Shown here: in pieces, positions 14,480 to 48,469 of the stretch
Position numbering within the stretch: the first letter of the stretch is position 1
Layout: the number at the start of each line of letters is the position of its first letter
Assembly (NCBI GenBank): GCA_015065325.1
Contig: SVQO01000003.1
Span: forward strand, 1 to 64,000
Direction of reading: 5' to 3'
Source: Oscillospiraceae bacterium
GTDB lineage: Bacteria > Bacillota > Clostridia > Oscillospirales > SIG627
Length of the DNA: 64,000 nucleotides
The notes under the pieces: generated by a model
What the model was told of the DNA's origin: nothing
Databases searched by the model: none
What the model saw: only the letters and a program-made list of their open reading frames with translations
Program-made: the position numbers and the translations under genes

Positions 14480-17203
14480 TTATACGGAACTCTCCAAAGC
14501 AAGTTTTCGTTCTTCCTTGCCCTTGACCTTATAGAAATAAATACACATCGTGACCGCGCACAGGAACCAGGAAACGGGATACGCAATACAAAGATATCCC
14601 AGCTTTTGCGGCAGGAACGGAAATACCACCAAGGTCCAGATCAGTCTGGGGACACAAACCGAGAGCATATTGGCAAGGGTCGGGCCCGAGGCATGCTTCA
14701 TTCCCCGCAGGCAGCAGTTGGACATATCGGCAACGACGCAGAACAAGTAACCCCAGTTGTTCAGCATCAGCTTGGAAAAGCCCACCTTGATCACTTCCTT
14801 GTCGTCGGTGTAAAGACCAAGGAAAAACGAGGGGAACAGCGTGAATGCCAGGCTGACCAACGAAATAAACACGAGTCCTACGAAAATTCCGCATCGGTAG
14901 CCTTTTTCAATACGCTTGAAGTTTTTCGCTCCGTAATTTTGCCCCGCAAAGCTGACGGCGGCGGTGGCAATGCCCGTGGTAACAACGTGGGCAATGGCAG
15001 AAACGCTTGTGGACGCAGAGGTCGCCGCAACGGAAAGCTTTCCAAGAGAATTAACCGCGGTAACGATAATGACGTTGGAAAAGCTGTAAACAATCCCATT
15101 GAGACCGGAGGGGATACCGACCTTGGTAATATTTCGGATCTCTTTAAAATTCAGACGAAGCTCGGAAATACGCATTTTGTATTCTCCGCTATGCTGAAAC
15201 AGCATATAGAGGATTGCCGCAGCAGACAGATAATGGGCTACGATGGTCGCTATGGCAACGCCCGCAGAATCCAAATGGTAATGAACCACGAACAAAAGGT
15301 TCAAAAGCACGTTGACCACGCCCGTGATCATCAAAACGTACATCGGGCGCTTGGTGTCTCCGTGGGCACGAAGAATTCCCGATCCGAAATTGTAAATAAT
15401 GTTGGCGGGCTGTCCGAGGAAAATGATCCTGATATAGGTAGTGGCCTCCTTCGCAATTTCGGAAGGACAGTTCATCCAATCCAAAAACAGGGGGCTCATC
15501 AACACGCCGATCAGTCCCACGATGACGCCGCAGATCGCCGACAAAGGAATCGCCGTATGGATCAGTCTTCGAAGCCCCTGCTTGTCGTTGGCGCCCACTC
15601 GGTTTGCACACAAAACGGTAGCTCCCGCGGAAATACCGATAAACAAATGCAGGATCAGATTGGTAAGGGAGTTGGTGGCACCCACCGCCGCCAGGGACTT
15701 TACACCGTCCGCAGCAAATTTTCCCACTACGATCATATCCGCGGAATGGTACAGTTGCTGGAGGAGATTTGCAATGCAGAGCGGAAAAGCGAAAATCAAA
15801 AGCTTCTTGAACACGGAGCCGGTGGTCAGATCCATGGTGTTTTTCTTTTTCACCTTCCCGATCTTCTTGTTTCGGGCGATGTAATAGCTCATCATCTGAG
15901 CCACCGCGGAACAGAGCCAGGAAATGGGAAAGCAGATGTAAAGGGAAATGAGATTTTCTTTCATATGAGGGAACACGAAAAGCACCCACGCCACGCGAAC
16001 ACCGCAAATGCAAACGATATTGAGCAGGGTCGGTCCCATGGATTTTCCGAAGCCCCTCTGACAGCCGTTGGCGATCTCCGAGACCGTATAGATCAGATAT
16101 CCCCAACAGGTAATATACATTTTCGGAACGGCAAGGCGGATCACCTCGGGGTTATCCGTATAGAGCCGCAAGAAAACCTCGGGAAACAAAGTCAGAACGA
16201 TATTGGCAGAGATAAACAGAGTTTCAACGATTGCAATGGCACTCCAAAGGCATTTGTCGATACGGTCAAAGCGCTTTGCTCCGTAATTCTGTCCGGAAAA
16301 ACTGATACAAGCAGTGGTAAATGCCGAGGGCAAGGTATATATCAGGGTAGAAACGCTGGTCGCCGCGGCAACGGCGGCAACCGTTGCACTGCCCATGTTG
16401 TTGACCGCAGAGATCACCACCACGTTGGACAGGTTGAATACTATGGCGTTCAGTCCCGCAGGACCGCCTATGCGGATGATCTTCCAAAACTCGTCTTTAT
16501 CAAACGAAAACTCGGAAAGCTGCAAACGGTACTCACCCTCGGGATGGAACAGGAGGTAAAGGGCAACGGCCGCTGAAAGCCACTGAGAAACGATGGTTGC
16601 AATGGCAACGCCTTGAACGTCCATTCCGAAGACGATCACCAGAACCAAATTCAGCGCCACGTTCACAAGCCCCGTTGCCGTCAGAATATACATAGGCCGC
16701 TTGGATTCTCCGTGTGCACGCATGATCGCCGAGCAGGCGTTGTAGATCAAAACGGCAGGCTTGCCAAGGAAAATGATCTGCATATACACCGTCGCCTGAT
16801 CGATCACGTCGGAAGGAGATCCCATCAAAAGCAGAAGCGGACGGCTCAGCACGAGCCCTATGACCGCAACCGCAACACCGCCGATGGCAGAGGAGATCAG
16901 TGCGGTCGTCATCGCCTTGCGTAGACCGCGACGATCCTGCGCACCGTAAAGATTTGCGCAACGGACGCTGGCTCCCGCCGTAAGACCTATAAACAAATTC
17001 AGGATCAAGCTGGTTATGGAGCTGGTGGAGCCTACCGCCGCCAAGGCAGTCGTGGAATTTTCCGCAAATTTTCCCACGACGATCACGTCTGCAGCGTGGT
17101 AAAGCTGTTGGACCAAAGAAGCCAGCCACAAGGGAAAAGCAAATACGAGCAATTTCTTGAAAACCGACCCCTTGGTCAAATCCATGCTGTGTGTGGTTGC
17201 CAT
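14480..17203 (-). CDS. Tandem fusion of two MATE-family efflux transporters
   Basis: 907 residues in one uninterrupted frame, about twice a normal MATE protein (roughly 450). Module 1 starts MATTHSMDLTKGSVFKKLLV and ends near residue 450; module 2 restarts with MDLTTGSVFKKLLIFAFPL at about residue 456. Each has about 12 hydrophobic segments and its own signature (SFSGQNYGAKRFDRID in module 1, SFAGQNYGAKNFKRIE in module 2). The linker is a short basic stretch (IGKVKKKNT). MATE proteins export drugs or metabolites with Na+ or H+. A weak AAGGTG lies about 14 bases before the internal ATG, so internal initiation is possible. The next MATE gene starts only about 30 bases upstream. Confidence 0.9.
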   Translation of the reverse strand: MATTHSMDLTKGSVFKKLLVFAFPLWLASLVQQLYHAADVIVVGKFAENSTTALAAVGSTSSITSLILNLFIGLTAGASVRCANLYGAQDRRGLRKAMTTALISSAIGGVAVAVIGLVLSRPLLLLMGSPSDVIDQATVYMQIIFLGKPAVLIYNACSAIMRAHGESKRPMYILTATGLVNVALNLVLVIVFGMDVQGVAIATIVSQWLSAAVALYLLFHPEGEYRLQLSEFSFDKDEFWKIIRIGGPAGLNAIVFNLSNVVVISAVNNMGSATVAAVAAATSVSTLIYTLPSAFTTACISFSGQNYGAKRFDRIDKCLWSAIAIVETLFISANIVLTLFPEVFLRLYTDNPEVIRLAVPKMYITCWGYLIYTVSEIANGCQRGFGKSMGPTLLNIVCICGVRVAWVLFVFPHMKENLISLYICFPISWLCSAVAQMMSYYIARNKKIGKVKKKNTMDLTTGSVFKKLLIFAFPLCIANLLQQLYHSADMIVVGKFAADGVKSLAAVGATNSLTNLILHLFIGISAGATVLCANRVGANDKQGLRRLIHTAIPLSAICGVIVGLIGVLMSPLFLDWMNCPSEIAKEATTYIRIIFLGQPANIIYNFGSGILRAHGDTKRPMYVLMITGVVNVLLNLLFVVHYHLDSAGVAIATIVAHYLSAAAILYMLFQHSGEYKMRISELRLNFKEIRNITKVGIPSGLNGIVYSFSNVIIVTAVNSLGKLSVAATSASTSVSAIAHVVTTGIATAAVSFAGQNYGAKNFKRIEKGYRCGIFVGLVFISLVSLAFTLFPSFFLGLYTDDKEVIKVGFSKLMLNNWGYLFCVVADMSNCCLRGMKHASGPTLANMLSVCVPRLIWTLVVFPFLPQKLGYLCIAYPVSWFLCAVTMCIYFYKVKGKEERKLALESSV

Positions 17204-17232
17204 AGCATCTCCTTCATCTAATTTTTAAAATT

Positions 17233-18630
17233 TCAAACCGCTTCCCGATTTAGTTTTTTTCTGTAATAGCGGTAACAGAAGAATTGCGCAACACCTGAGA
17301 TCGCCCAGGAGATCGGATAACACCAAAGAAGTATCTTATAGTCGTGCAAAAGCGTTTCAAAGGTAGGATCCGCTCCGCCGATCGCCAAAGCGGGATACGC
17401 GAGGAGCACCCAGATGATACGCGGGACGCAAATGCAAACGACGTTCAAAGCGGAAGGCAAAACGGATTTTCCCATTCCTCTCATACAACCGATACTGAGC
17501 TCCGGAATCACGTAAATCGCGTAGCTTCCGCACAAAATGGCAATACGGGCGGCACCCAGCAAAACCACCGGATCCTCACGGGTAAAAAGACGCATGATCC
17601 ACGGTGCCGAAAAGACCGAAATCACACCGATCACAAGGAACAGTGAGATTGCCATAAGGGTTGCCGTTTTCCAAAGCTTATCGATCCGATCGTATTTTTT
17701 CGCGCCGTAATTCTGCCCCGCAAAGCTGATACAAGCGGTGTAGAAAGCAACCAGCACCTGATAAAGGATGGCATCCACGTTATGAGCCGCGGAATTGGCG
17801 GCAAGGACGTCTTTTCCCAGTTTATTCAGTGCCGCTACGATAATCACGTTGGAAAGACTGAACACCATACTGTTCAATCCGCTGGGGATTCCCACTCCCG
17901 CAATGGGACGAACCGCTTTTCCGAGAGAGAGTTCGGACAAGCGCAGGCGGAATTCCCCGTGAGGAGAAAACAGGATCCAAAGAACGGCGGCTGCGGAGAG
18001 ATAGTAAGATATTACCGTGGCAAGCGCAACGCCGGCAGACTCCATATTGAAGGCGAGAACGAATATGAAATTCAAGATCACGTTGACCAGACCGGAGGTC
18101 ATCAGGATATACATCGGTCGCTTGGTATCTCCGTGAGAACGGAGAATGCCTGCACCGAAGTTATAAAGCAAGCTACCCGGCTGACCAAGGAAAATGATCC
18201 GCATATAAAGTGCCCCCTGCTCCCGCACGACCCCCACCGGAGTACCGGTCAGGGCGAGCAAGTGTTCGGCAAAAATCACACCGAGGATCCCGATCCCGAT
18301 TCCGCAAACTGCGGCAAGCAAAAGGGAGGTGTGCATGGCACGCCGCAATTCCGTCTCTTGTTTTGCCCCGTACAGACGAGCGCAAACCACGTTGGCACCC
18401 ACCGCAAGTCCCAGGAACAAATTCAGACACAAAGCGGTGATAGCAGTGGTGGAGCCAACCGCCGCCATTGCGATCGTAGGCTCATCGGCACAGTTTCCGA
18501 CTACCGCCATATCCGCGGTATGATAAAGCTGTTGAAGCAAATTGGTGAAAATAATGGGGATTGCAAATATCAGCATCTTTTTCAGGACGGAGCCCTGTGT
18601 CAAATCCGTTTTATTTTTTACAGTTGTCAT
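17233..18630 (-). CDS. MATE-family efflux transporter
   Basis: 465 residues, starting MTTVKNKTDLTQGSVLKKML and carrying SFAGQNYGAKKYDRIDKL near residue 295. It has about 12 membrane segments of the MatE domain pair. The N-terminal DLTQGSVLKKMLIFAIP block is shared with all four MATE modules in this cluster, pointing to local duplication. It lies 29 bases upstream of the double MATE gene on the same strand and is probably co-transcribed with it. Substrate unknown. Confidence 0.93.
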   Translation of the reverse strand: MTTVKNKTDLTQGSVLKKMLIFAIPIIFTNLLQQLYHTADMAVVGNCADEPTIAMAAVGSTTAITALCLNLFLGLAVGANVVCARLYGAKQETELRRAMHTSLLLAAVCGIGIGILGVIFAEHLLALTGTPVGVVREQGALYMRIIFLGQPGSLLYNFGAGILRSHGDTKRPMYILMTSGLVNVILNFIFVLAFNMESAGVALATVISYYLSAAAVLWILFSPHGEFRLRLSELSLGKAVRPIAGVGIPSGLNSMVFSLSNVIIVAALNKLGKDVLAANSAAHNVDAILYQVLVAFYTACISFAGQNYGAKKYDRIDKLWKTATLMAISLFLVIGVISVFSAPWIMRLFTREDPVVLLGAARIAILCGSYAIYVIPELSIGCMRGMGKSVLPSALNVVCICVPRIIWVLLAYPALAIGGADPTFETLLHDYKILLWCYPISWAISGVAQFFCYRYYRKKLNREAV

Positions 18631-18722
18631 TCAAAAAAAGCACTCCTTCTCATCGTATTCCCCATTATAGCACAAATTTTGCTTTTTGGGTCGGAAAATT
18701 CGTTTTTATTAAAAAAAGAAAA

Positions 18723-18755
18723 CGCAGTACAAAGGCACACAGCCCTTGCACTGCG
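18723..18755 (-). terminator. Terminator after the third MATE gene
   Basis: On the minus strand the 13-base imperfect stem CGCAGTGCAAGGG / CCTTTGTACTGCG is followed by TTTTCTTTTTTT. It ends the transcript of the 18761-20161 gene, so the other MATE genes need their own promoter. Confidence 0.85.
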
Positions 18756-18760
18756 ATATT

Positions 18761-20161
18761 TTACGTAGATACGGAATCCGCTTCCGCGGCAAAACGCTTC
18801 GCTTCAACTTTTCGGTAATAGAAATAACTGATCGCCTGGGCGATGGCGGAAAGCGCCCAAGAGATCGGATAGCACCAAAGGAGCATCACGTAATTGTAAG
18901 GCTTATCCGCAGTCACCAGTAACGGATAAAAGGCAAGAACCCAAACAATACGGGGAACGCAAATAAAGAACGCGTTCAACACCGTAGGCATCAAGGATTT
19001 TCCCATACCACGACAGCAACCGATCGCCATTTCCGATACGCAATAAAGCACGTAACCGGCGCCCATCATGAACACACGGGAAACGCCGACGGAAACGGCT
19101 GCTTGGTTCTTCGAAAAAATACCCACGAAAAATTGAGGGAACAAAAACAGAAATGCATCTGTCAAAAGGATCAGACCGATGGAAAGGATCGAGCTCCATA
19201 AGAAGAGCTTATCGATCCGCTTCAAATTCTTCGCCCCGTAATTCTGCCCCGAGAAGCTAACGGCGGCGGAATAGAAGGCGGCGATGATCTGGTAGGTCAT
19301 GGTATCCACGTTGGACGCGGCGGTATTCCCCGCAAGGACTATTTTGCCCAGCTCGTTGACTTCCTTCACGATCAACACGTTGGACAGGCTGAAAACGATA
19401 CCGTTCAACCCGCAAGGGACGCCGACTTTTACAATGTCGATCGTTTCTTTTTTCGAAACGCGCAGTTCCTTTACGGTCAATCGGTATTCTCCGTGAGCGT
19501 GGAAAAGAATATAGAGAACCGCCGACGCCGAAAGGTAGAGAGCGACGACCGTAGCGAGAGCCACGCCCGCGGCATCCATTTTTAATCGGATCACGAACAG
19601 AAGATTCAAAAGCACGTTGATCAGACCGGTTGTGATCAGAATATACATAGGCCGCTTGGTATCTCCGTGCGCACGGAGAATTCCAGCACCGAAGTTAAAC
19701 AGCAGACTGGCAGGCTGTCCAAGAAAGACGATCTGCATGTAATCCGTTGCCTGAGGAAGGACTTCGGAAGGAGAATGCATCACTTTATCCAAAAGAAAAG
19801 GGGTGGCGAAATATCCCGCGATGCCGATCACCACACCGCTGACGGCCGCGATGATCAAGCTGCTGTGCATCGTGCGGCGGAGAGACTCATGCTTGCCCGA
19901 GCCGTACAGATTGGCACAAACCACGTTGGCTCCCACTGCAAGACCGAGAAACAAATTGAGAAACAGATTGGTAATGGATGCGGTAGAGCCTACGGCGGCA
20001 AGAGAAATTTCCTTTTCAACCGCATAATTTCCCACCACGTAGGTATCGGCGCACTGGTACAGCTGCTGAAGTAAATTCGCCAGCAAAATGGGGAAAGCAA
20101 AAATCACCAGTTTTTTGACAACCGGTCCCTTGGTCAAGTCTATGGAATGTTTCGCAGCCAC
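18761..20161 (-). CDS. MATE-family efflux transporter
   Basis: 466 residues if translation begins at the GTG at 20161 (MAAKHSIDLTKGPVVKKLV), which has AGAGGTG six bases upstream and mirrors the MATTHSMDLTKG start of the neighbouring MATE. An earlier GTG at 20170 falls inside the ribosome binding site. It carries SFSGQNYGAKNLKRIDKL near residue 290 and about 12 membrane helices. It has its own promoter (20191-20218) and terminator (18723-18755). It is the founding or most upstream copy of the four-module MATE cluster. Substrate unknown. Confidence 0.92.
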   Translation of the reverse strand: MAAKHSIDLTKGPVVKKLVIFAFPILLANLLQQLYQCADTYVVGNYAVEKEISLAAVGSTASITNLFLNLFLGLAVGANVVCANLYGSGKHESLRRTMHSSLIIAAVSGVVIGIAGYFATPFLLDKVMHSPSEVLPQATDYMQIVFLGQPASLLFNFGAGILRAHGDTKRPMYILITTGLINVLLNLLFVIRLKMDAAGVALATVVALYLSASAVLYILFHAHGEYRLTVKELRVSKKETIDIVKVGVPCGLNGIVFSLSNVLIVKEVNELGKIVLAGNTAASNVDTMTYQIIAAFYSAAVSFSGQNYGAKNLKRIDKLFLWSSILSIGLILLTDAFLFLFPQFFVGIFSKNQAAVSVGVSRVFMMGAGYVLYCVSEMAIGCCRGMGKSLMPTVLNAFFICVPRIVWVLAFYPLLVTADKPYNYVMLLWCYPISWALSAIAQAISYFYYRKVEAKRFAAEADSVST

Positions 20162-20190
20162 GCATATCACCTCTGAATAACACTAGTGAG

Positions 20191-35942: not shown

Positions 35943-37061
35943 TTATTTTTTTTGCTTTTTGTATTCGTTTTTGCGGATTCCGGGATAATGCTTATCCAAA
36001 TACGCCTCACGGTAGGGATTGACACCCTCGGAAGGCTGATCGGGATGCAAGGGCAAGGACCAGCATTCCTTTTTGTAATAGGGGTTTTTGAAGGTCTGCT
36101 CAACTCTGCCCGAGCGCTCCAAAACGTCGTTGCATGCCCGGATACAACCTCTGGCACCGCATATAGCGAAATATCCCGTATGCTCTATAATATAATTGTA
36201 GTAATCCATCACCGCGTGGTTACCGGGCTTTCTGCCCCACTTTGCCCCCGCCAAAGAATATGCGAGGATATACGCTTCCTCTTCCGTCATCTGGGAAGAA
36301 CGGACGTCAAATGCCATATTGGGAAATTCTTTTTTTAAGAAAGGAGAGCATTCATTGTTCATTCCATGATGAGAAAGGGTACATCTGCCCATTTGCACGT
36401 CTCCGTACCAGATCTTCTTTTCTCCGAAATCCACGGTAATTCTGGCACTTTCATCCCGAGGATCGGGAATCGCTCCGCCCGGGCAACGCCTTGCACAAGC
36501 GCCGCAATGCAAACAGAGTGTGCCCGTATCCAAAATGGGATCCGGCTCCAATTCGCAGTCTGTAAAAATCAGACCGAGACGTACACGGGGCCCGTATTTT
36601 TTGGTGAGGAACACCTTGGACCATCCGATCTCACCCAGACCGCAGCCTGCGGCGATCACTCGAATGCTGCACACAATATCGGGAGGAAGCTTTCCTTCAG
36701 CAACCGGCTTTTTTGTCGTTCCGTTTCCTTCGGGAACAGCGGGATAGTGGGCTACCGCCTCCCAACCGCAATCCTCAATGAAGCAGCAAAGCTGATAGGT
36801 CTTCAAGGGACGGAAAAAGGCATTCAACTTGTTATAGGTATAAAAAGTGTAGTTATGCCAATGAGTCCCTTCCTCGATACCGCGATTGGCACCGCGAGGA
36901 ATGGGCATGGCAATGGCGATCACGGATTTTGCCTTTGGAAAATACGTAATGGGACTCATTAAGGCAGGAGCATTTCGAAAACGTTCAATATTGCCCACGG
37001 CAATACAGTCGATGCCCAGCTCCTTTGCCTTCGCCTTCAGAATTTCGGAAGTCAGTTTCAT
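35943..37061 (-). CDS. QueG-like (epoxyqueuosine-reductase-family) Fe-S protein
   Basis: 372 residues. The N-terminal two-thirds has the family's fold signatures: LKAKAKELGIDCIAVGNIER, FPKAKSVIAIAMPIPRG and AAGCGLGEIGWSKVFLTKKYG. The ferredoxin part has CLHCGACARRCPGG (C-x2-C-x2-C-x3-CP) at about residue 190, and a second set of cysteines, CGARGCIRACN, at about 315. True QueG reduces epoxyqueuosine in tRNA with cobalamin; multiple divergent copies like these occur next to regulators in Clostridia and their substrates are unknown. Co-directional with, and overlapping by four bases, a second copy upstream. Confidence 0.8.
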   Translation of the reverse strand: MKLTSEILKAKAKELGIDCIAVGNIERFRNAPALMSPITYFPKAKSVIAIAMPIPRGANRGIEEGTHWHNYTFYTYNKLNAFFRPLKTYQLCCFIEDCGWEAVAHYPAVPEGNGTTKKPVAEGKLPPDIVCSIRVIAAGCGLGEIGWSKVFLTKKYGPRVRLGLIFTDCELEPDPILDTGTLCLHCGACARRCPGGAIPDPRDESARITVDFGEKKIWYGDVQMGRCTLSHHGMNNECSPFLKKEFPNMAFDVRSSQMTEEEAYILAYSLAGAKWGRKPGNHAVMDYYNYIIEHTGYFAICGARGCIRACNDVLERSGRVEQTFKNPYYKKECWSLPLHPDQPSEGVNPYREAYLDKHYPGIRKNEYKKQKK

Positions 37062-37978
37062 TTCTTATGCCCCCGATCTCCGCTTTTGGAAAAAGCACCG
37101 CCCAAAACGTTTGCCTGTTCATCGGAGCGGTCGGCAGCACAGCTCCCCCCGATGCTCCAGGTCTCACCCGTGCGGAACGGATTGGCGAATTTCTTGCTCA
37201 AAGCTCCCTTTTCCTCCAAGACACACATACAGCTTCGGTTGCAGAGAGCAGCAACACGGTCAGGCTTTGCGTCAGGAGAGAACCGATTGGGAACGGCACC
37301 GTTCTGACAAATGCGGCATTTTTCGTAATCGATCTTCCCTACCGTAAAGGATTTTCCGCAGATTTTTACCGTTTCGGTCTCCGTTTTACTGATGGCACCC
37401 AAGGGGCAGGCATCGGCGCACGCCTTGCAAAGGTCGCACACGTTCTCATCAAGAAGCGGAGTGCTTTCCAGTTCCGCGTCGGTCAGAATCATATGAAAAC
37501 GCTGACGTGAACCGAATTCGCGGGAAAACACGAGCCCGTTATAGGAAAGAGTGCACAAGCCGCAGGCGATGGCGGCATAATCAAAATCCGGATAAACGTT
37601 GGGAGCGGGACGCCCTTCGGCAACGGGGACGCCGGCAGGATCGATCTCGCAGGGATTGGGAAACACGGGAACTGCCTCCCATCCGCATTCCTCAATAAAG
37701 TTTGTCAAATTATATGCGGAAAGTGCCAAAAATTCATCCTCCAGCCAGTTCTTCCCGAACAGCTGATAATCTCCGAAATTGGTTCCCTCCTCCACACCGC
37801 GCAAGGAACCTCTGCAGATTCGTTTTCCCACCATGATCACAGTCTTTGCTTCGGGGAAAATGGAAAAAGGATCACATCTGACATCCACCCCTGCAAAGCG
37901 GGAGCGATCGGCAAAGCCGATCAAATCAATCCCTTCCTTGGCAGAAAATTCTTCGATTTTCTTTTTTAGTGTATTCAT
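37058..37978 (-). CDS. Second QueG-like Fe-S protein
   Basis: 306 residues, a shorter paralog of the gene at 35943-37061, which it overlaps by four bases. Shared signatures: EGIDLIGFADRSR, FPEAKTVIMVGKRI, GVEEGTNFGDYQLFG and ACGLCTLSYNGLVFSREFGS. The ferredoxin motif is CDLCKACADACPLGA (about residue 185), and later cysteines appear as CRICQNG and CNRSCMC. The two products may form a heterodimer. The gene faces the AraC regulator at 38121 across a 142-base intergenic region, suggesting direct control. Confidence 0.8.
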   Translation of the reverse strand: MNTLKKKIEEFSAKEGIDLIGFADRSRFAGVDVRCDPFSIFPEAKTVIMVGKRICRGSLRGVEEGTNFGDYQLFGKNWLEDEFLALSAYNLTNFIEECGWEAVPVFPNPCEIDPAGVPVAEGRPAPNVYPDFDYAAIACGLCTLSYNGLVFSREFGSRQRFHMILTDAELESTPLLDENVCDLCKACADACPLGAISKTETETVKICGKSFTVGKIDYEKCRICQNGAVPNRFSPDAKPDRVAALCNRSCMCVLEEKGALSKKFANPFRTGETWSIGGSCAADRSDEQANVLGGAFSKSGDRGHKK

Positions 37979-38074
37979 ACCGATTTCTCCTCTTTATTTT
38001 TTATACTGCCATTATATCTTGACACAAGTTATAATAAAACTCACTTTTTAACGAAAAGGTGGATTTTTCAACGC

Positions 38075-38102
38075 TTGATTTTTCAAATAGATCTGCTATA
38101 AT
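38075..38102 (+). promoter_or_regulatory. Promoter of AraC-family gene 38121
   Basis: -35 TTGATT (38075-38080), 16-base spacer, -10 TATAAT (38097-38102). The start codon with GAGGTGG is 19 bases downstream of the -10. Confidence 0.65.
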
Positions 38103-38120
38103 GGAATTGAGGTGGATAAA

Positions 38121-38861
38121 ATGTTATCAATTCAAAATCCCGTCCTGCACATTGCGGGCATCGAACAGATGCAGTGGAACGGCGGAAGCTTTCACGTTGC
38201 GCCCCGAGACTTTGCCGTATTGGCATACCGCATTAAGGGAGACGCTGTCATCCGTGCCGGAGGAAATACCTATGAAATACAAAGCGGCGACATTCTGTAT
38301 CTCCCGCAAAATATGGCATATTCGGCAAAATACGGCAATACGGATCTGATTGCCATCCACTTCGTCACCGCTCGGGACGACGGAGAGATCAAGGTATATC
38401 CAAAAGCCAAGCAATTATCGCCCTTGTTTCTGCGGGCAAGAGAGATTTGGGAAAAGCGAGAGCCCGGATATACAACCTTTGCCATAGCACAGCTATACAC
38501 GATTCTGGGAAACCTTGAGGAGCTTACGGCAAAAAAGGATTTACCCGCGCACTTTCTCAAAGCTCTCACCTTCATCAATTCTCACTATACCGACAAAAGT
38601 ATAAACGTAGATACGATCTGCTCACGCGCAGGGATGGGAGGCACCACATTCCGTCAGCTCTTTAAAAAGCACTATCACAAAACACCCACGGAATACGTAA
38701 CTCTCTTGAGACTGGAGCATGCAAGAAGCATGATCGCCGGCGGCTCCACCGTAGAGCACGCCGCCTTTGAAAGCGGCTTTTCCGACCCGAAGTATTTTGC
38801 CCGCGTGGTGAAAAAGGTCTTCGGCTGTACTCCCCGCGATTTCAAAAGCTACGGAAAATAG
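38121..38861 (+). CDS. AraC-family transcriptional regulator
   Basis: 246 residues from the ATG at 38121, preceded by TTGAGGTGG; an in-frame GTG at 38112 lies in that site. Residues about 20-90 form a cupin sensor domain (GGNTYEIQSGDILYLPQ). Residues about 150-246 carry the double helix-turn-helix (INVDTICSRAGMGGTTFRQLFKKH and the second, VEHAAFESGFSDPKYFARVVKK). It is divergent from the two QueG-like genes and probably regulates them in response to a small molecule. Confidence 0.9.
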   Translation: MLSIQNPVLHIAGIEQMQWNGGSFHVAPRDFAVLAYRIKGDAVIRAGGNTYEIQSGDILYLPQNMAYSAKYGNTDLIAIHFVTARDDGEIKVYPKAKQLSPLFLRAREIWEKREPGYTTFAIAQLYTILGNLEELTAKKDLPAHFLKALTFINSHYTDKSINVDTICSRAGMGGTTFRQLFKKHYHKTPTEYVTLLRLEHARSMIAGGSTVEHAAFESGFSDPKYFARVVKKVFGCTPRDFKSYGK

Positions 38862-38869
38862 GCTGTCGG

Positions 38870-39682
38870 TCAAAAGGTGATCCCGACATCCTCCTTCTTT
38901 TTGATCTGACGCGGTGTGACCCCTGTGTAACGCTTGAAAAGCTTACCGAAGTATTTAATATCCCGAACCCCCACGGCTTCCGCAACCTCGCTCACGGTAT
39001 ATTCCCCCGTTTTCAGCAGGTGGATCGCCTTTTGGACCCGAAGACGGTTTCGGTATTCCACCGGAGAGACCCCCATGCACTCCGAAAAGCTTTTTCGGAA
39101 GCTTCCCTCCGAAAGACAGCACATTTTCGACAGTTGGGATACGGGAAATTCTCGGTTAAAATTGTGTTGCAGATAGCCCAGCCCCTCTTTGATCTTCAGA
39201 TAATGCTCGTCCAGCTGGGTACGATTGGTTTCTCTGGCAATCTCGCAAAGGAGCTTAAAAGAAAGAGACAGCCTCTCCAGCCAGTCGAAGGGCCCGCTTG
39301 CGTCTGCTTTTGAAGACAGCTCCTCCAGCAAGCCTCGGTAGATCCCATGAGTATCGCAAAACAGGATGGAAGGAGTTTCATCAAAGCGGATCGGATTTTC
39401 ATTGGAGTCGTGGAGCAAGAGGTCCACCACCATAAATTCGGATGACTGCAGCCACTCCGAACGGTAAGCGGTTCCGCCGGGAAGATAGACCAGATCTCCG
39501 TTTCCCGCGCAAAGCTGTCCGTTTTCCAAAAAAAAGGTCGCCTTACCCGTCGTTATATACACGAATCGGTCTATGGGAGAAGGGCGCATTACGTATTGAT
39601 GCCGAGCAGGTACTGCACAGGATTCGATTCGAAGATCGATCAAAGCCAACTGATTGACAGAAGCATGTGCCAAAGCATTCAT
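38870..39682 (-). CDS. AraC-family transcriptional regulator
   Basis: About 270 residues; the start could be the ATG at 39682 or a TTG at 39688 with GAGGTGAT close upstream. The N-terminal cupin (YITTGKATFFLENGQLCAGNG) is followed by the C-terminal AraC DNA-binding domain (FPVSQLSKMCCLSEGSFRKSF; TVSEVAEAVGVRDIKYFGKLFKR; GVTPRQ). It is convergent with the AraC gene at 38121, only eight bases apart, and divergent from the large QueG-like gene at 39850, its likely target. Confidence 0.88.
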   Translation of the reverse strand: MNALAHASVNQLALIDLRIESCAVPARHQYVMRPSPIDRFVYITTGKATFFLENGQLCAGNGDLVYLPGGTAYRSEWLQSSEFMVVDLLLHDSNENPIRFDETPSILFCDTHGIYRGLLEELSSKADASGPFDWLERLSLSFKLLCEIARETNRTQLDEHYLKIKEGLGYLQHNFNREFPVSQLSKMCCLSEGSFRKSFSECMGVSPVEYRNRLRVQKAIHLLKTGEYTVSEVAEAVGVRDIKYFGKLFKRYTGVTPRQIKKKEDVGITF

Positions 39683-39707
39683 TTTCAAATCCGATCACCT
39701 CGTAGAC

Positions 39708-39736
39708 AGTATAGCACCGCCTATTTGGGGTGTCAA
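39708..39736 (-). promoter_or_regulatory. Promoter of AraC-family gene 38870-39682
   Basis: Minus strand: -35 TTGACA (39731-39736), 17-base spacer, -10 TATACT (39708-39713). Confidence 0.8.
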
Positions 39737-39806
39737 CAAGTTCGTCGGCTCCGGACTTTTTTTACGAAAAAAGAATTATTTTGTCCCTTTATTTCCGATC
39801 TCTCCC

Positions 39807-39820
39807 TTGCTATAATGAAA
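39807..39820 (+). promoter_or_regulatory. Weak, probably activator-dependent promoter of the large QueG-like gene
   Basis: A good -10 with an upstream TTGC (TTGCTATAAT) lies about 35 bases before the ATG at 39850, but the base positions 17 upstream give only TTTATT-like sequence. A strong -10 without a -35 is what an AraC-activated promoter often looks like. The divergent AraC gene fits that reading. Confidence 0.4.
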
Positions 39821-39849
39821 GTAGTATCAAATGAAGAAGGAGCGTGACT

Positions 39850-42168
39850 ATGGAAAACAGCCTTACTTTGAAAGTGAAAGAATTTGCCTACCGTCTTGGC
39901 GCAGACCTGGTGGGAATCGCAAATATTGAGCGCTACGCAAACGCCCCAATCAAAATGAGTCCTCAAGGAATCCTGCCCACTGCCAAATCCGTAATCGTTT
40001 GCGCGGTGCATCATCCCGACGCCGCTATTGAGCTGGACGGCGAGATCCATCCGCAGATCATGGGCCCGTACCGCATCCAGTACATTATGAATGACAAGCT
40101 GGACGTGCTTTCCTTCCGAATCGCCAGAATGCTGGACGATCTTGGGTATCAAACCGTTCCCATCGCCAGCTCCAATATCTGGCGTTACCGCGGATACAAG
40201 GAAATGGACGCCACCTTTGCTCCGGATATCAGCCACATTTACAGCGGCGTTTGCGCGGGACTCGGAGAGCTGGGCTGGAACGGTCTTTGCATTACTCCCG
40301 AATACGGCGCACGCAACCGCTTCGTATCCATTATCACGGAAGCAGAGCTTACTCCCACGCCCCTCTACAACGGTCCCAAGCTTTGCGATATGTGCGGAGA
40401 ATGCATTCGCAAATGCCCCACCAACGCGTACCGCAAGGAGGTCAACGGAACCAAGAACGTGGTCGTGGAAGGCAAGGACCATATTTTCTGCAATAAAAAT
40501 CTTTGGCGCTGTGCCTGGGGTGAGCACTTTGATATCGATCTGGATCTTCCCATTCCCGAAAAGGTGGACGAAAAGGTTCTGCTGGAGCACGTGGCAAAGC
40601 ACGGTCTGCGAGGCGGAGAATTCGGCGTATGCTTAAAGGTCTGCCTGCCCAAGCACCTGCGGAATTGGGATGAGAGCTACTGCAAAAAAACGGCGCGCCG
40701 CAAGCGCCACGTGACCCCCTCCGAGCTTCCGGTACACCGCCAGGTCTATGACAAGATCCTGACTCACGCACGCACCTGGGATCTGGACAGTGTTCATTTC
40801 ATTTCCCAAGAAACTCTGTGTGCCGCAGGCATTGATATTACCACCGAGCTCCCCGACGGAATCAGCGCGGTGCTTCTCACCTCCCGATATAGGCTTCCTG
40901 CCGGGGCAAAGATCGATCACGATGGAAGCATGGCGCATATCGAAGGCTTCGACAGCTGCCATAAGACCCGCGCAGACGCTCTTGACAGCTACGGAAGAAT
41001 TGCCCAATTCAACGTAGATTTTACCGAGCTGGACGTTTGCCGCGAATTAGAAACGCTGGGCTATACCGCGCTGCCGAAAACCACGCTGGATCACGAGCCC
41101 TTCCGTGCCCTGTGCGAAATCGCCGAAACGGAAAATACTTACGTCCGCACCTCTCTGGTGCTGACCTCCGCCCCCTTTGAGGATCGCGGTGCTACGGAGC
41201 TTTCCGCCCTTGCACCTGCAAAGAACACCAAAGAGCAGTTGAAGCAGCTTGCAAAGGAAAAAGGTGCCGATCTGTTCGGCGTTGCTTCTGCAAAAACCAT
41301 TGACCAAATCACCGAGCAGCTTCGCTCCATCCGCAAGGACGAGACTCAATTCGTAGTAGAAGACAAAAACACGAGAATGATGCCCTTTGATCCCGTCGTT
41401 ACGGAAGTAAAACGGGAATTTGTCAATATGAAAGATCTGGTACAAGATGCAAAATCCGTGATCGTACTGGGGATGCATTATCCCGAAACGCCTGCCATGA
41501 GAGTCGGAAAGCCGCCTGCAGAATCCGTAGGCCCTTACGTATTTACCCAATATGAGGTCAACCGTCTCACGGGTCATCTTGCCTATTCGATCTGCAGAAG
41601 TCTGAATGCACTGGGCTACGAAGCAGTATATTCGCACAATTTGACCGGAGCCGGTTCAACCGTCGGAAGTCCTCGCGGGCAGTTCAACGACGCCTCTTGC
41701 AACGCGCTGGAAGCCGTTGCCGCAGGTATCGGCAAAATGGCGTTAAACGGCTCGGTGGTCACAGAGGAATACGGAATCCATCAGCGATTCGTTGCCATCG
41801 TCACCAACGCAGATCTGGAAAGTGACTCAATTCAGGAAGGTCTTGCCGAGGCTTGCCAAGGCTGTGAAAAATGTCTGACCTCTTGTCCTACGGGTGCACT
41901 CCGCAAAGAGCGCCTGACGACGCTTGTTCTGGACGGAAAACGGATCACCTATCTTCCCGTGGATGCTCAACGCTGTGACTGGGCAACCAAGTTTTCCCTC
42001 ACCGCAGAGGAGGGCAATATGTACACGGGCAATTTCACCGACGTTCCCTGCCCCGAAACCGTAACGAAGGAAAACCTTGCCGACGCTCTGCGCAGGCAAG
42101 ACCCCGTCTTTAAATTCCGACCCGTTACCGGTGAAAAATGTATTGTAAACTGTCCCTTGCAAAAATAA
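39850..42168 (+). CDS. Multi-module QueG-like Fe-S protein with three repeats of the family's N-terminal fold
   Basis: 772 residues from the ATG at 39850 (AAGGAG seven bases upstream; a GTG two codons earlier is less likely). Module 1 (about 1-275): LGADLVGIANIERYA, PTAKSVIVCAVHHPD, and ferredoxin CDMCGECIRKCP at residue 179. Module 2 (about 295-450) repeats the same order (ELPDGISAVLLTSRY, CRELETLGYTALPKTTLD, VRTSLVLTSAPFEDR) but has no ferredoxin. Module 3 (about 455-772): KGADLFGVASAKTID, DAKSVIVLGMHYPE, ferredoxin CQGCEKCLTSCP at residue 669 and a Cys pair at the very end (CIVNCP). Its function and substrate are unknown; probably an Fe-S redox enzyme of the QueG/reductive-dehalogenase superfamily. 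It faces an AraC regulator. Confidence 0.82.
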   Translation: MENSLTLKVKEFAYRLGADLVGIANIERYANAPIKMSPQGILPTAKSVIVCAVHHPDAAIELDGEIHPQIMGPYRIQYIMNDKLDVLSFRIARMLDDLGYQTVPIASSNIWRYRGYKEMDATFAPDISHIYSGVCAGLGELGWNGLCITPEYGARNRFVSIITEAELTPTPLYNGPKLCDMCGECIRKCPTNAYRKEVNGTKNVVVEGKDHIFCNKNLWRCAWGEHFDIDLDLPIPEKVDEKVLLEHVAKHGLRGGEFGVCLKVCLPKHLRNWDESYCKKTARRKRHVTPSELPVHRQVYDKILTHARTWDLDSVHFISQETLCAAGIDITTELPDGISAVLLTSRYRLPAGAKIDHDGSMAHIEGFDSCHKTRADALDSYGRIAQFNVDFTELDVCRELETLGYTALPKTTLDHEPFRALCEIAETENTYVRTSLVLTSAPFEDRGATELSALAPAKNTKEQLKQLAKEKGADLFGVASAKTIDQITEQLRSIRKDETQFVVEDKNTRMMPFDPVVTEVKREFVNMKDLVQDAKSVIVLGMHYPETPAMRVGKPPAESVGPYVFTQYEVNRLTGHLAYSICRSLNALGYEAVYSHNLTGAGSTVGSPRGQFNDASCNALEAVAAGIGKMALNGSVVTEEYGIHQRFVAIVTNADLESDSIQEGLAEACQGCEKCLTSCPTGALRKERLTTLVLDGKRITYLPVDAQRCDWATKFSLTAEEGNMYTGNFTDVPCPETVTKENLADALRRQDPVFKFRPVTGEKCIVNCPLQK

Positions 42169-47197: not shown

Positions 47198-47226
47198 TTC
47201 ACAAAATCGTTCTTTTTCATTAAAAT
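47198..47226 (+). promoter_or_regulatory. Candidate promoter of the CARF nuclease gene
   Basis: -35 TTCACA (47198-47203), 17-base spacer, -10 TAAAAT (47221-47226). Each hexamer matches consensus at five of six bases. The ATG at 47267 follows with AAAAAGGAG. Confidence 0.55.
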
Positions 47227-47266
47227 CGCACAAATTCTTGGAAAGCCATTCAAAAAGGAGCATTTT

Positions 47267-48469
47267 ATGGCAAAAATATTGATCGAATTTTACTCGGTAA
47301 AAACACCGGAGAATTTGATTTCCCTATTTAACGAAAGATTCGATGAGGTCGTTTTCCTCTGTTCCGCCGAAAAAAGCATTCCCTCTCCGCGCAGAAGGAA
47401 CGCGCTCTCGGAGCAGGTAAAAAAGCTTCTCGGCTTTCCCGCAAGATTTTGCGAGATCAAGCATCTTTCCGTTTCCTCCGCACTGGAAGCGTTGAATTTG
47501 CTCTGGGAGGACGGAAACGAATATTTGATCGATATTACGGGAGGAGACGAAGCGTTTCTTGCCGCCGCGGGAATCTTTACCCAGCAAAAGCTTGAAAGCG
47601 TCAGTCTGCATTATTACGACGTCCCCACCGGTAAGAAGCTGTTTTCCTATCCCGAAAAACAGCAATCCACTCCCCCTTTTCCCCATTACGTTTCCGTACC
47701 CGAGCTTCTCACCTTAAACGGCTCCGCGCCTCTTTCCGCACCTTCTTACGTTTTTACGAGAGGACCGCTTAAGAGGGAAATTCTGCGCCTTTGGAGTGCA
47801 GTCAGAAGCCGTCCCAAGGAATGGAACCGTTTCTGTGCACTGGATCACGATCAGCTCGAAAACAGGCAAAATCTGACCCAAAAGATCCTGGAAAACGATG
47901 CGGGCATCAGCGCGTATCAAACCGTCTCCGCACGTCTGAAAAGCGCAGGCATTTTGACCCATGAAACAAAAAGCAATCGGCGCGGGCGTGAAGTTATGAA
48001 TTTCTCGCTCAAGGTGCCCGAGGAAGCACTCTTTTTGTACGACAAGGCCGGAAATCTGCTGGAAATGTACTGTGCGCTATGTGCTCACGATAGCGGTCTT
48101 TTTCACGACATCCGCGTCGGCGTGATGCTGGACTGGAACGGAACCGTCTCCGCGGGCCGCCTCGTCGATCCAAGAAACGAGGTGGATCTGATCCTGATGC
48201 GGGAAAATCTTCCCATTCTGGCAAGCTGTAAAAATACCGCTCCGCAAAACGAGCACCTTTACGAAATTATGATCATGGCAAAGCACTACGGCGGTTATTT
48301 TGCCACACCTGCGTTGTTTGCTTCGGGGCGGGCAACGGAAACGGTAAAAAAGCGTGCCGATGAAATGGGGATCGTCCTCATCGACGGAATTCGCTTCAAA
48401 ACCCCCGAGCAAATGACTGTGATCATGAAAAACACGTTTTCCGAAAAACTACCTATTTTACAAAAATGA
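47267..48469 (+). CDS. Stand-alone CARF-domain nuclease, Card1/Can2-like (DUF1887)
   Basis: 400 residues from the ATG at 47267 (AAAGGAG upstream). Residues 1 to about 145: Rossmann-like CARF ligand-binding domain with strands KILIEFY and EVVFLCSAE and the glycine motif DITGGDEAF (residues 89-97), where CARF proteins typically have TGGTK. About 165-250: wHTH-like linker (GPLKREILRLW, TVSARLKSAGIL). About 260-400: PD-(D/E)xK-type nuclease with GNLLEMY (E266), GLFHDIRVGVMLDW, NEVDLIL (D307) and SCK (K322). The ExK glutamate position is Ser320. Family members cut DNA or RNA when cyclic oligoadenylate binds; here no cas gene or array is present in 64 kb. Followed after seven bases by an EamA transporter. 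Confidence 0.82.
   Translation: MAKILIEFYSVKTPENLISLFNERFDEVVFLCSAEKSIPSPRRRNALSEQVKKLLGFPARFCEIKHLSVSSALEALNLLWEDGNEYLIDITGGDEAFLAAAGIFTQQKLESVSLHYYDVPTGKKLFSYPEKQQSTPPFPHYVSVPELLTLNGSAPLSAPSYVFTRGPLKREILRLWSAVRSRPKEWNRFCALDHDQLENRQNLTQKILENDAGISAYQTVSARLKSAGILTHETKSNRRGREVMNFSLKVPEEALFLYDKAGNLLEMYCALCAHDSGLFHDIRVGVMLDWNGTVSAGRLVDPRNEVDLILMRENLPILASCKNTAPQNEHLYEIMIMAKHYGGYFATPALFASGRATETVKKRADEMGIVLIDGIRFKTPEQMTVIMKNTFSEKLPILQK

What the first reader, a model, noticed from the sequence alone, without database searches (positions are those of the whole stretch)
47267..48469. Stand-alone CARF nuclease of the Card1/Can2 (DUF1887) type far from any CRISPR locus
The sequence shows an N-terminal CARF-like domain (ITGGDE in place of TGGTK), a wHTH-like linker and a PD-(D/E)xK nuclease domain. 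The family's known members are activated by cyclic oligoadenylate made by type III CRISPR complexes. Here there is no Cas10, array or any cas gene within at least 16 kb either side. The ExK glutamate position reads Ser-Cys-Lys (S320-C321-K322). From memory, some Firmicutes members share SCK, which may mark a housekeeping or non-CRISPR subfamily. It may answer a different nucleotide signal or be a repurposed regulator.
Basis: partly seen in the sequence, partly recalled or inferred. Interest (0 to 1): 0.75.

Follow-up and report, generated by a model that had tools for sequence, protein, structure and literature searches.

The report
CRISPR-free CARF nuclease, rearranged active site
This is a lone relative of the Card1/Can2 immune nucleases that type III CRISPR switches on, but it belongs to a large Clostridia branch that lives without type III CRISPR, has a rearranged cutting site and an altered sensor pocket, and so probably answers a different, unknown alarm signal.

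Summary
Window 47267-48469 encodes a 400-aa CARF + PD-(D/E)xK protein. Its model (pLDDT 87, pTM 0.88) matches VC1899, Can2 and Card1 over nearly full length (Z 28.5, 24.6, 22.5). It is single copy. Cas10, RAMP and Cas1 are not found in its genome (88.7% complete).

It belongs to an "SCK" branch of DUF1887. All 27 readable proteins of this family in an unbiased Clostridia sample have S-C-K where Can2, VC1899 and Card1 have catalytic E-C-K. In 114 aligned members E266, E305, D307, S320, C321 and K322 never vary. Each has one Glu on the next helix (position 330 or 333) that the E-C-K proteins lack. This suggests a migrated metal ligand, as in CCGG-family restriction enzymes, so probably still a nuclease.

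The branch is not linked to type III CRISPR: 0/20 holders in the order, 3/36 in the class, 4/46 in one genus. The cA4-phosphate lysine is acidic here and in 91 of 114.

In an outer clade (not in this window) 32 of 73 loci carry RCK/RyR membrane proteins, a ClpA-FtsH protease, YbjN or RyR genes nearby, suggesting a CRISPR-independent signalling system. Ligand and activity are untested. New variant of a known kind.

The parts
47267..48469 (+). SCK-type CARF-PD-(D/E)xK protein gene (400 aa plus stop)
47255..47260 (+). Shine-Dalgarno AAGGAG, 6 nt before the start codon
   Evidence: sequence
47198..47226 (+). possible promoter TTCACA-17-TAAAAT (10 of 12); weak, about 2 such sites expected by chance in the scanned region
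47267..47659 (+). CARF domain, residues 1-131
   Evidence: CARF chains align to residues 1-131
47534..47551 (+). ITGGDE, residues 90-95; Can2 K99, which grips a cA4 phosphate, is E95 here
47660..48040 (+). linker subdomain, residues 132-258: helices plus a two-strand hairpin, as in Can2/VC1899
   Evidence: description in PMC7969007
48041..48445 (+). PD-(D/E)xK nuclease domain, residues 259-393
48062..48064 (+). E266, motif I acidic residue (invariant in 114; by position in the motifs the counterpart of Cdn1 Mg ligand E274, inferred)
48176..48187 (+). N304-E305-V-D307, motif II (Can2 E276/D278)
48224..48232 (+). S320-C321-K322, motif III with Ser in place of the catalytic Glu
48263..48265 (+). 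E333 on helix 328-345, proposed migrated metal ligand

Best explanation
It is a stand-alone, CRISPR-independent member of an SCK branch of the DUF1887 (CARF4; Card1/Can2/VC1899) family. Proposed mechanism: the protein is a CARF-joined homodimer (inferred from VC1899/Can2). A small ligand binding between the two CARF domains moves the nuclease domains together, and a metal-dependent PD-(D/E)xK site then cuts nucleic acid (inferred from Can2/Card1/Cdn1). The site is rearranged: motif III has Ser instead of the catalytic Glu, and a Glu one helix later (E333 here, position 330 in the outer clade) supplies the missing metal ligand, alongside E266, D307 and K322. The pocket is not built for cA4 (K99 is replaced by E95) and the genome has no detectable cOA synthase, so the trigger is probably another signal, perhaps nucleotide-derived, made outside CRISPR. 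Likely role: a stress or anti-phage effector. Shown here: fold, membership of the branch, residues, absence of type III genes. Inferred: dimer, catalysis, ligand, role.
For: Fold: model pLDDT 87 / pTM 0.88; Foldseek and VIA matches to VC1899, Can2, Card1, Cdn1. Branch: 27/27 readable Clostridia members found with PF09002 are S-C-K, against E-C-K in Can2, VC1899, Card1 and 8bao; the 114 SCK proteins separate from Can2/VC1899 with local support 81. Active site: E266, N304, E305, D307, S320, C321, K322 all 114/114; exactly one Glu at 330 (89) or 333 (25); neither in the E-C-K proteins. Cdn1 Mg is held by E274, D310, E323, K325; by position E323 corresponds to S320. CCGG-family enzymes use PDx(21-53)Kx(12-13)E, and BsaWI shifts that acid by about one helical turn. 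CRISPR independence: RAMPs in 0/20 order holders, 3/36 class holders against 49/355, 4/46 genus holders against 3/22. Pocket: acidic at the K99 position in 91/114. Precedent: VC1899 is an orphan, and its weak RNase activity is not regulated by cA4.
Against: The Glu switch 330/333 needs only one change on the tree, so it is conservation within two groups, not many independent compensations. No coordinates were available to measure whether E333 reaches the metal site. VC1899 keeps E-C-K yet is an orphan, so active site and CRISPR independence are not strictly linked. Some members (Clostridiaceae) keep a basic residue at the K99 position and Tyr at the Y118 position, so a cOA-like ligand is possible for them. 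The window locus itself has no conserved neighbour that points to a signal or a role.
Confidence: 0.6

Rival explanations
1. A nuclease-dead sensor: Ser for Glu inactivated the site and the protein now acts as a ligand-controlled binder or transcription regulator through the linker subdomain and the nuclease fold.
For: The Glu that corresponds to the Cdn1 Mg ligand E323 is lost in all members; VC1899, an orphan relative, has only weak residual RNase activity.
Against: All other catalytic positions, including K322, are invariant in 114 divergent proteins, and a Glu is always found on the next helix. Dead enzymes usually lose such residues.
Confidence: 0.2
2. A constitutive or housekeeping nuclease in DNA or RNA maintenance, with no infection-linked signal.
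For: Near-core and syntenic in one Clostridiaceae genus: 46/68 genomes and shared neighbours. Not found in the plasmid, phage or viral collections searched. Most loci lie among housekeeping genes.
Against: Patchy in the window's order (20/146) and genus (3 of 6, three different loci). It evolves faster than its neighbours in the syntenic genus (48-58% against 63-96% for the Psd, 2Fe-2S and ABC-F neighbours). A CARF sensor is retained. RyR/RCK/TIR loci join it in an outer clade.
Confidence: 0.2
3. An ordinary Card1/Can2 effector, cut off from a type III locus that is missing from the draft genome or acts in trans.
For: Same fold and domain order as Card1/Can2; genome 88.7% complete.
Against: RAMPs in 0 of 20 holders in the order, including many above 90% complete; no association in class or genus. 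E-C-K and TGGTK are both altered.
Confidence: 0.05

Closest known systems
VC1899 (PDB 1XMX), orphan DUF1887 protein of Vibrio cholerae
   Same: Closest fold (Z 28.5); orphan without type III CRISPR; cA4 pocket residues not conserved (PMC7969007).
   Different: Keeps E-C-K; Arg at the K99 position where this protein has Glu; 16% identity.
Can2 / Card1 / Cdn1 (DUF1887 effectors of type III CRISPR)
   Same: CARF + linker + PD-(D/E)xK, conserved E266, N-E-x-D and K equivalents.
   Different: Motif III Glu replaced by Ser with a Glu on the next helix; cA4 phosphate Lys replaced by Glu; no type III locus.
CCGG-family restriction enzymes (Cfr10I, NgoMIV, BsaWI), permuted PD...K...D/E site
   Same: Catalytic Lys without the adjacent Glu, and the acid supplied from a later helix, 10-14 residues after Lys (PMC4652773, PMC6344858).
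   Different: Unrelated in sequence; here the Glu is 8 or 11 residues after Lys; geometry not tested.
PADLOC / CARF-superfamily class CARF4 (CARF_PDDEXK)
   Same: Full-length HMM matches, so sequences of this kind were already within the CARF4 profiles.
   Different: No text found in the held library separates the SCK branch, its active site or its RyR/RCK neighbours.

Membership tests
DUF1887 / CARF4 CARF-PD-(D/E)xK (Card1/Can2 in the broad sense) | CARF domain plus PD-(D/E)xK domain with the family fold | tested here: met
DUF1887 / CARF4 CARF-PD-(D/E)xK (Card1/Can2 in the broad sense) | Pfam PF09002 match over the curated cut-off | tested here: inconclusive
   window protein 21.1 bits against 26.4; many members of its branch pass
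Card1/Can2 in the strict sense | E-C-K motif III | tested here: not met
   S-C-K in the window and 114/114
Card1/Can2 in the strict sense | cA4 contact residues S19, T42, K99, Y118 (Can2) | tested here: not met
   window has S10, S33, E95, Y116 by alignment; the key Lys is acidic
Card1/Can2 in the strict sense | encoded with, or co-occurring with, type III CRISPR | tested here: not met
Card1/Can2 in the strict sense | nuclease activity switched on by cOA | not testable with these tools
   needs biochemistry
Permuted (PD...K...E) active-site nucleases | catalytic Lys without neighbouring Glu, plus an acid on the following helix | tested here: met
   sequence and predicted helix only
Permuted (PD...K...E) active-site nucleases | that acid coordinates metal in space | not testable with these tools
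   no coordinates available; needs a structure

The most novel reading that the evidence does not exclude
SCK CARF nucleases are the effector arm of a CRISPR-independent second-messenger system of Clostridia, in which TIR/RyR/RCK-channel proteins and a ClpA-FtsH protease make, sense or limit a non-cOA nucleotide signal (possibly NAD-derived), and the window protein is a solo member responding to the same kind of signal.
Probability: 0.25. Interest if true: 0.8.

Novelty: new variant of a known kind. Interest (0 to 1): 0.52.

Why it matters
CARF proteins are read almost entirely through type III CRISPR. A large Clostridia branch, near-core in one genus, that keeps sensor and nuclease but not CRISPR implies another source of CARF ligands. 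It also gives a natural case of a PD-(D/E)xK site whose Glu appears to have moved to another helix. Both are directly testable on small soluble proteins, and the RyR/RCK/Clp-FtsH loci give candidate partner genes to test.

Tried and rejected
Single-protein genome-contig scan with the window protein found nothing; the profile of nearer relatives did. No match in viral contigs, the phage collection or the plasmid collection, so a viral or plasmid origin is not supported. The idea that invariant D289-W290 replaces the missing Glu was dropped: in the wider set D289 is Leu/Val/Glu in several groups. CD-NTase (SMODS) as a signal source: 0 of 20 holders. Cas1 is not enriched among holders (5/20 against 35/126), so the TIR association is not simply a larger accessory genome, though genome size and phylogeny remain confounders. 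TIR proteins as obligate partners: rejected for the window's genus (none in G004/G005). NCBIfam gave no family. Papers on the 2020 CARF classification, Card1 (PMC7906951) and T. brockii Can2 were not held.

Full report
What is there. The ORF at 47267-48469 is real: 400 aa, with a good ribosome-binding site (AAGGAG, 47255-47260) and a weak promoter-like site upstream. It is the only copy in the genome. PADLOC CARF4--CARF_PDDEXK models match it end to end (E 7.4e-22). Pfam Card1_endonuc matches the nuclease part below its cut-off. NCBIfam has no model for it. AlphaFold2 with 55 sequences gives pLDDT 87 and pTM 0.88. The best structural matches are VC1899 (Foldseek E 4.9e-21, Z 28.5), DUF1887/Can2 8bao (27.7), Cdn1 (25.1), Can2 (24.6) and Card1 (22.5), all over nearly the full length.

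No type III CRISPR. Cas10 palm (PF22335), RAMP (PF03787) and Cas1 (PF01867) searches find nothing in the window's genome, which is 88.7% complete. In 146 genomes of the order, 20 hold a homologue and none of these has RAMPs; RAMPs occur in only two genomes, neither a holder. In a Clostridia sample of 391 genomes, 36 hold a PF09002 protein. RAMPs are in 3 of these 36 against 49 of 355 others (Fisher p 0.45). In one Clostridiaceae genus the gene is single copy in 46 of 68 genomes, with RAMPs in 4 of 46 holders and 3 of 22 non-holders (p 0.67). There it sits in a conserved block. In the window's genus it is found in 3 of 6 species at three unrelated places. So the branch is independent of type III CRISPR, fixed in some lineages and patchy in others.

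An altered active site. E-C-K is present in Can2, VC1899, Card1 and 8bao. In Cdn1 the metal is held by E274, D310, E323 and K325 (PMC12825302); by position in the motifs these correspond to E266, D307, S320 and K322 here (inferred). Every readable Clostridia protein found with PF09002 (27 of 27) has S-C-K. In an alignment of 114 such proteins E266, N304, E305, D307, S320, C321 and K322 are all invariant. Each protein has exactly one Glu at position 330 (89 proteins) or 333 (25, including the window), one turn apart on helix 328-345. The E-C-K proteins have none at either place. This resembles the CCGG-family restriction enzymes, where the acid has moved to the helix after the Lys strand (PDx21-53Kx12-13E) and can shift by about one turn (BsaWI D175 against NgoMIV E201; PMC4652773, PMC6344858). 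A caution: on the tree the 330/333 difference is one change, so it is strong conservation in two groups rather than repeated compensation. The distance to the metal site was not measured.

An altered pocket. Of the four cA4 contacts shared by Can1 and Can2 (S19, T42, K99, Y118; PMC7969007), the aligned window residues are S10, S33, E95 and Y116. The Lys position is acidic in 91 of 114 proteins, 73 of which carry Arg/Lys at the Y118 position instead; the 8 proteins of the Clostridiaceae type with a basic residue there keep an aromatic residue. VC1899, also an orphan, was reported to have weak residual RNase activity not regulated by cA4. The ligand of the window protein is therefore probably not cA4, but this rests on sequence alone.

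Neighbours elsewhere. A profile of nearer relatives found 220 relatives in named genomes (80 kept), nearly all gut Clostridia MAGs. Of 73 loci whose genes could be called, 32 have one or more of four partner families within four genes: RCK-type membrane proteins (24 loci), a 1,150-aa fusion of a ClpA-like AAA+ module with an FtsH-like AAA/M41 protease (21), small RyR proteins (11) and YbjN-like proteins (10). Directly adjacent partners are on the same strand in 31 of 31 cases against 70 of 113 other neighbours (p 4e-6), usually with short gaps. The label changes 15-25 times on the tree, so the association is repeatedly gained or lost rather than inherited synteny. The membrane partner models as a helical membrane domain followed by a TrkA/RCK gating ring (closest 4j9v TrkA, then Slo channels), with a RyR-like C-terminal motif seen by eye. 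TIR proteins occur in some loci. RyR (7/20 against 7/126) and TIR (16/20 against 31/126) are enriched in genomes that hold the CARF gene, but genome size and kinship were only partly controlled. The module also exists without the CARF gene (L186). None of it is beside the window gene, and RyR is absent from its genome.

Interpretation. The most likely account is a ligand-switched, metal-dependent nuclease of a CRISPR-independent branch, with a rearranged catalytic Glu and a pocket tuned to something other than cA4. A dead-enzyme sensor and a constitutive housekeeping nuclease remain open. It works like Card1/Can2 in architecture. It is not filed as Card1/Can2 in the strict sense, because motif III, the cA4 contacts and the type III link were tested and not met.

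Novelty. Orphan DUF1887 proteins are known (VC1899; also CARF genes outside CRISPR noted in PMC4012209), and PADLOC's CARF4 profiles already cover these sequences. The S-C-K branch, its helix-borne Glu, its independence of type III CRISPR across Clostridia and its RyR/RCK/ClpA-FtsH neighbourhoods were not found described in the held papers, a limited library.

Noticed in passing
L047:2302-13122: Ten-kilobase locus: two YbjN-like genes, SCK CARF nuclease, RCK membrane protein, ClpA-FtsH fusion protease, second RCK-type membrane protein, RyR protein; a candidate uncharacterised signalling or defence system.
   Followed up: partly
L186:4567-12431: The same TIR-RyR-RCK-ClpA/FtsH-RCK module in a genome without any CARF homologue (G041).
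   Followed up: partly
L178:7575-9318 and L179:8549-10265: A macrodomain-like gene overlaps or abuts the CARF nuclease gene in two genomes of different genera, a hint at an ADP-ribose link.
   Followed up: no
L169:677-1936: CARF nuclease beside a type III locus in a Clostridia genome with TGGTK in CARF but S-C-T in motif III and a Glu on the next helix: another altered active site.
   Followed up: partly
L181-L185 (own genome contigs C23, C34, C8, C33, C31): Eight TIR matches in the window's genome; the proteins read look like an N-terminal zinc ribbon and repeat region followed by a TIR domain, several in tandem, none near the window gene.
   Followed up: partly
window 14480-20170 (-): Tandem MATE-type transporter genes, one of them a 907-aa ORF holding two complete MATE-like halves.
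   Followed up: partly
window 35943-42168: Run of QueG-like iron-sulphur proteins, one a 774-aa double-length protein (39844-42168), interleaved with AraC-type regulators.
   Followed up: no
L170, L171, L175: In the syntenic Clostridiaceae genus the CARF nuclease diverges faster (48-58% identity) than its Psd, 2Fe-2S and ABC-F neighbours (63-96%).
   Followed up: partly
L094:11261-12154 and similar: PrsW-type intramembrane protease genes next to the CARF gene in several loci.
   Followed up: no
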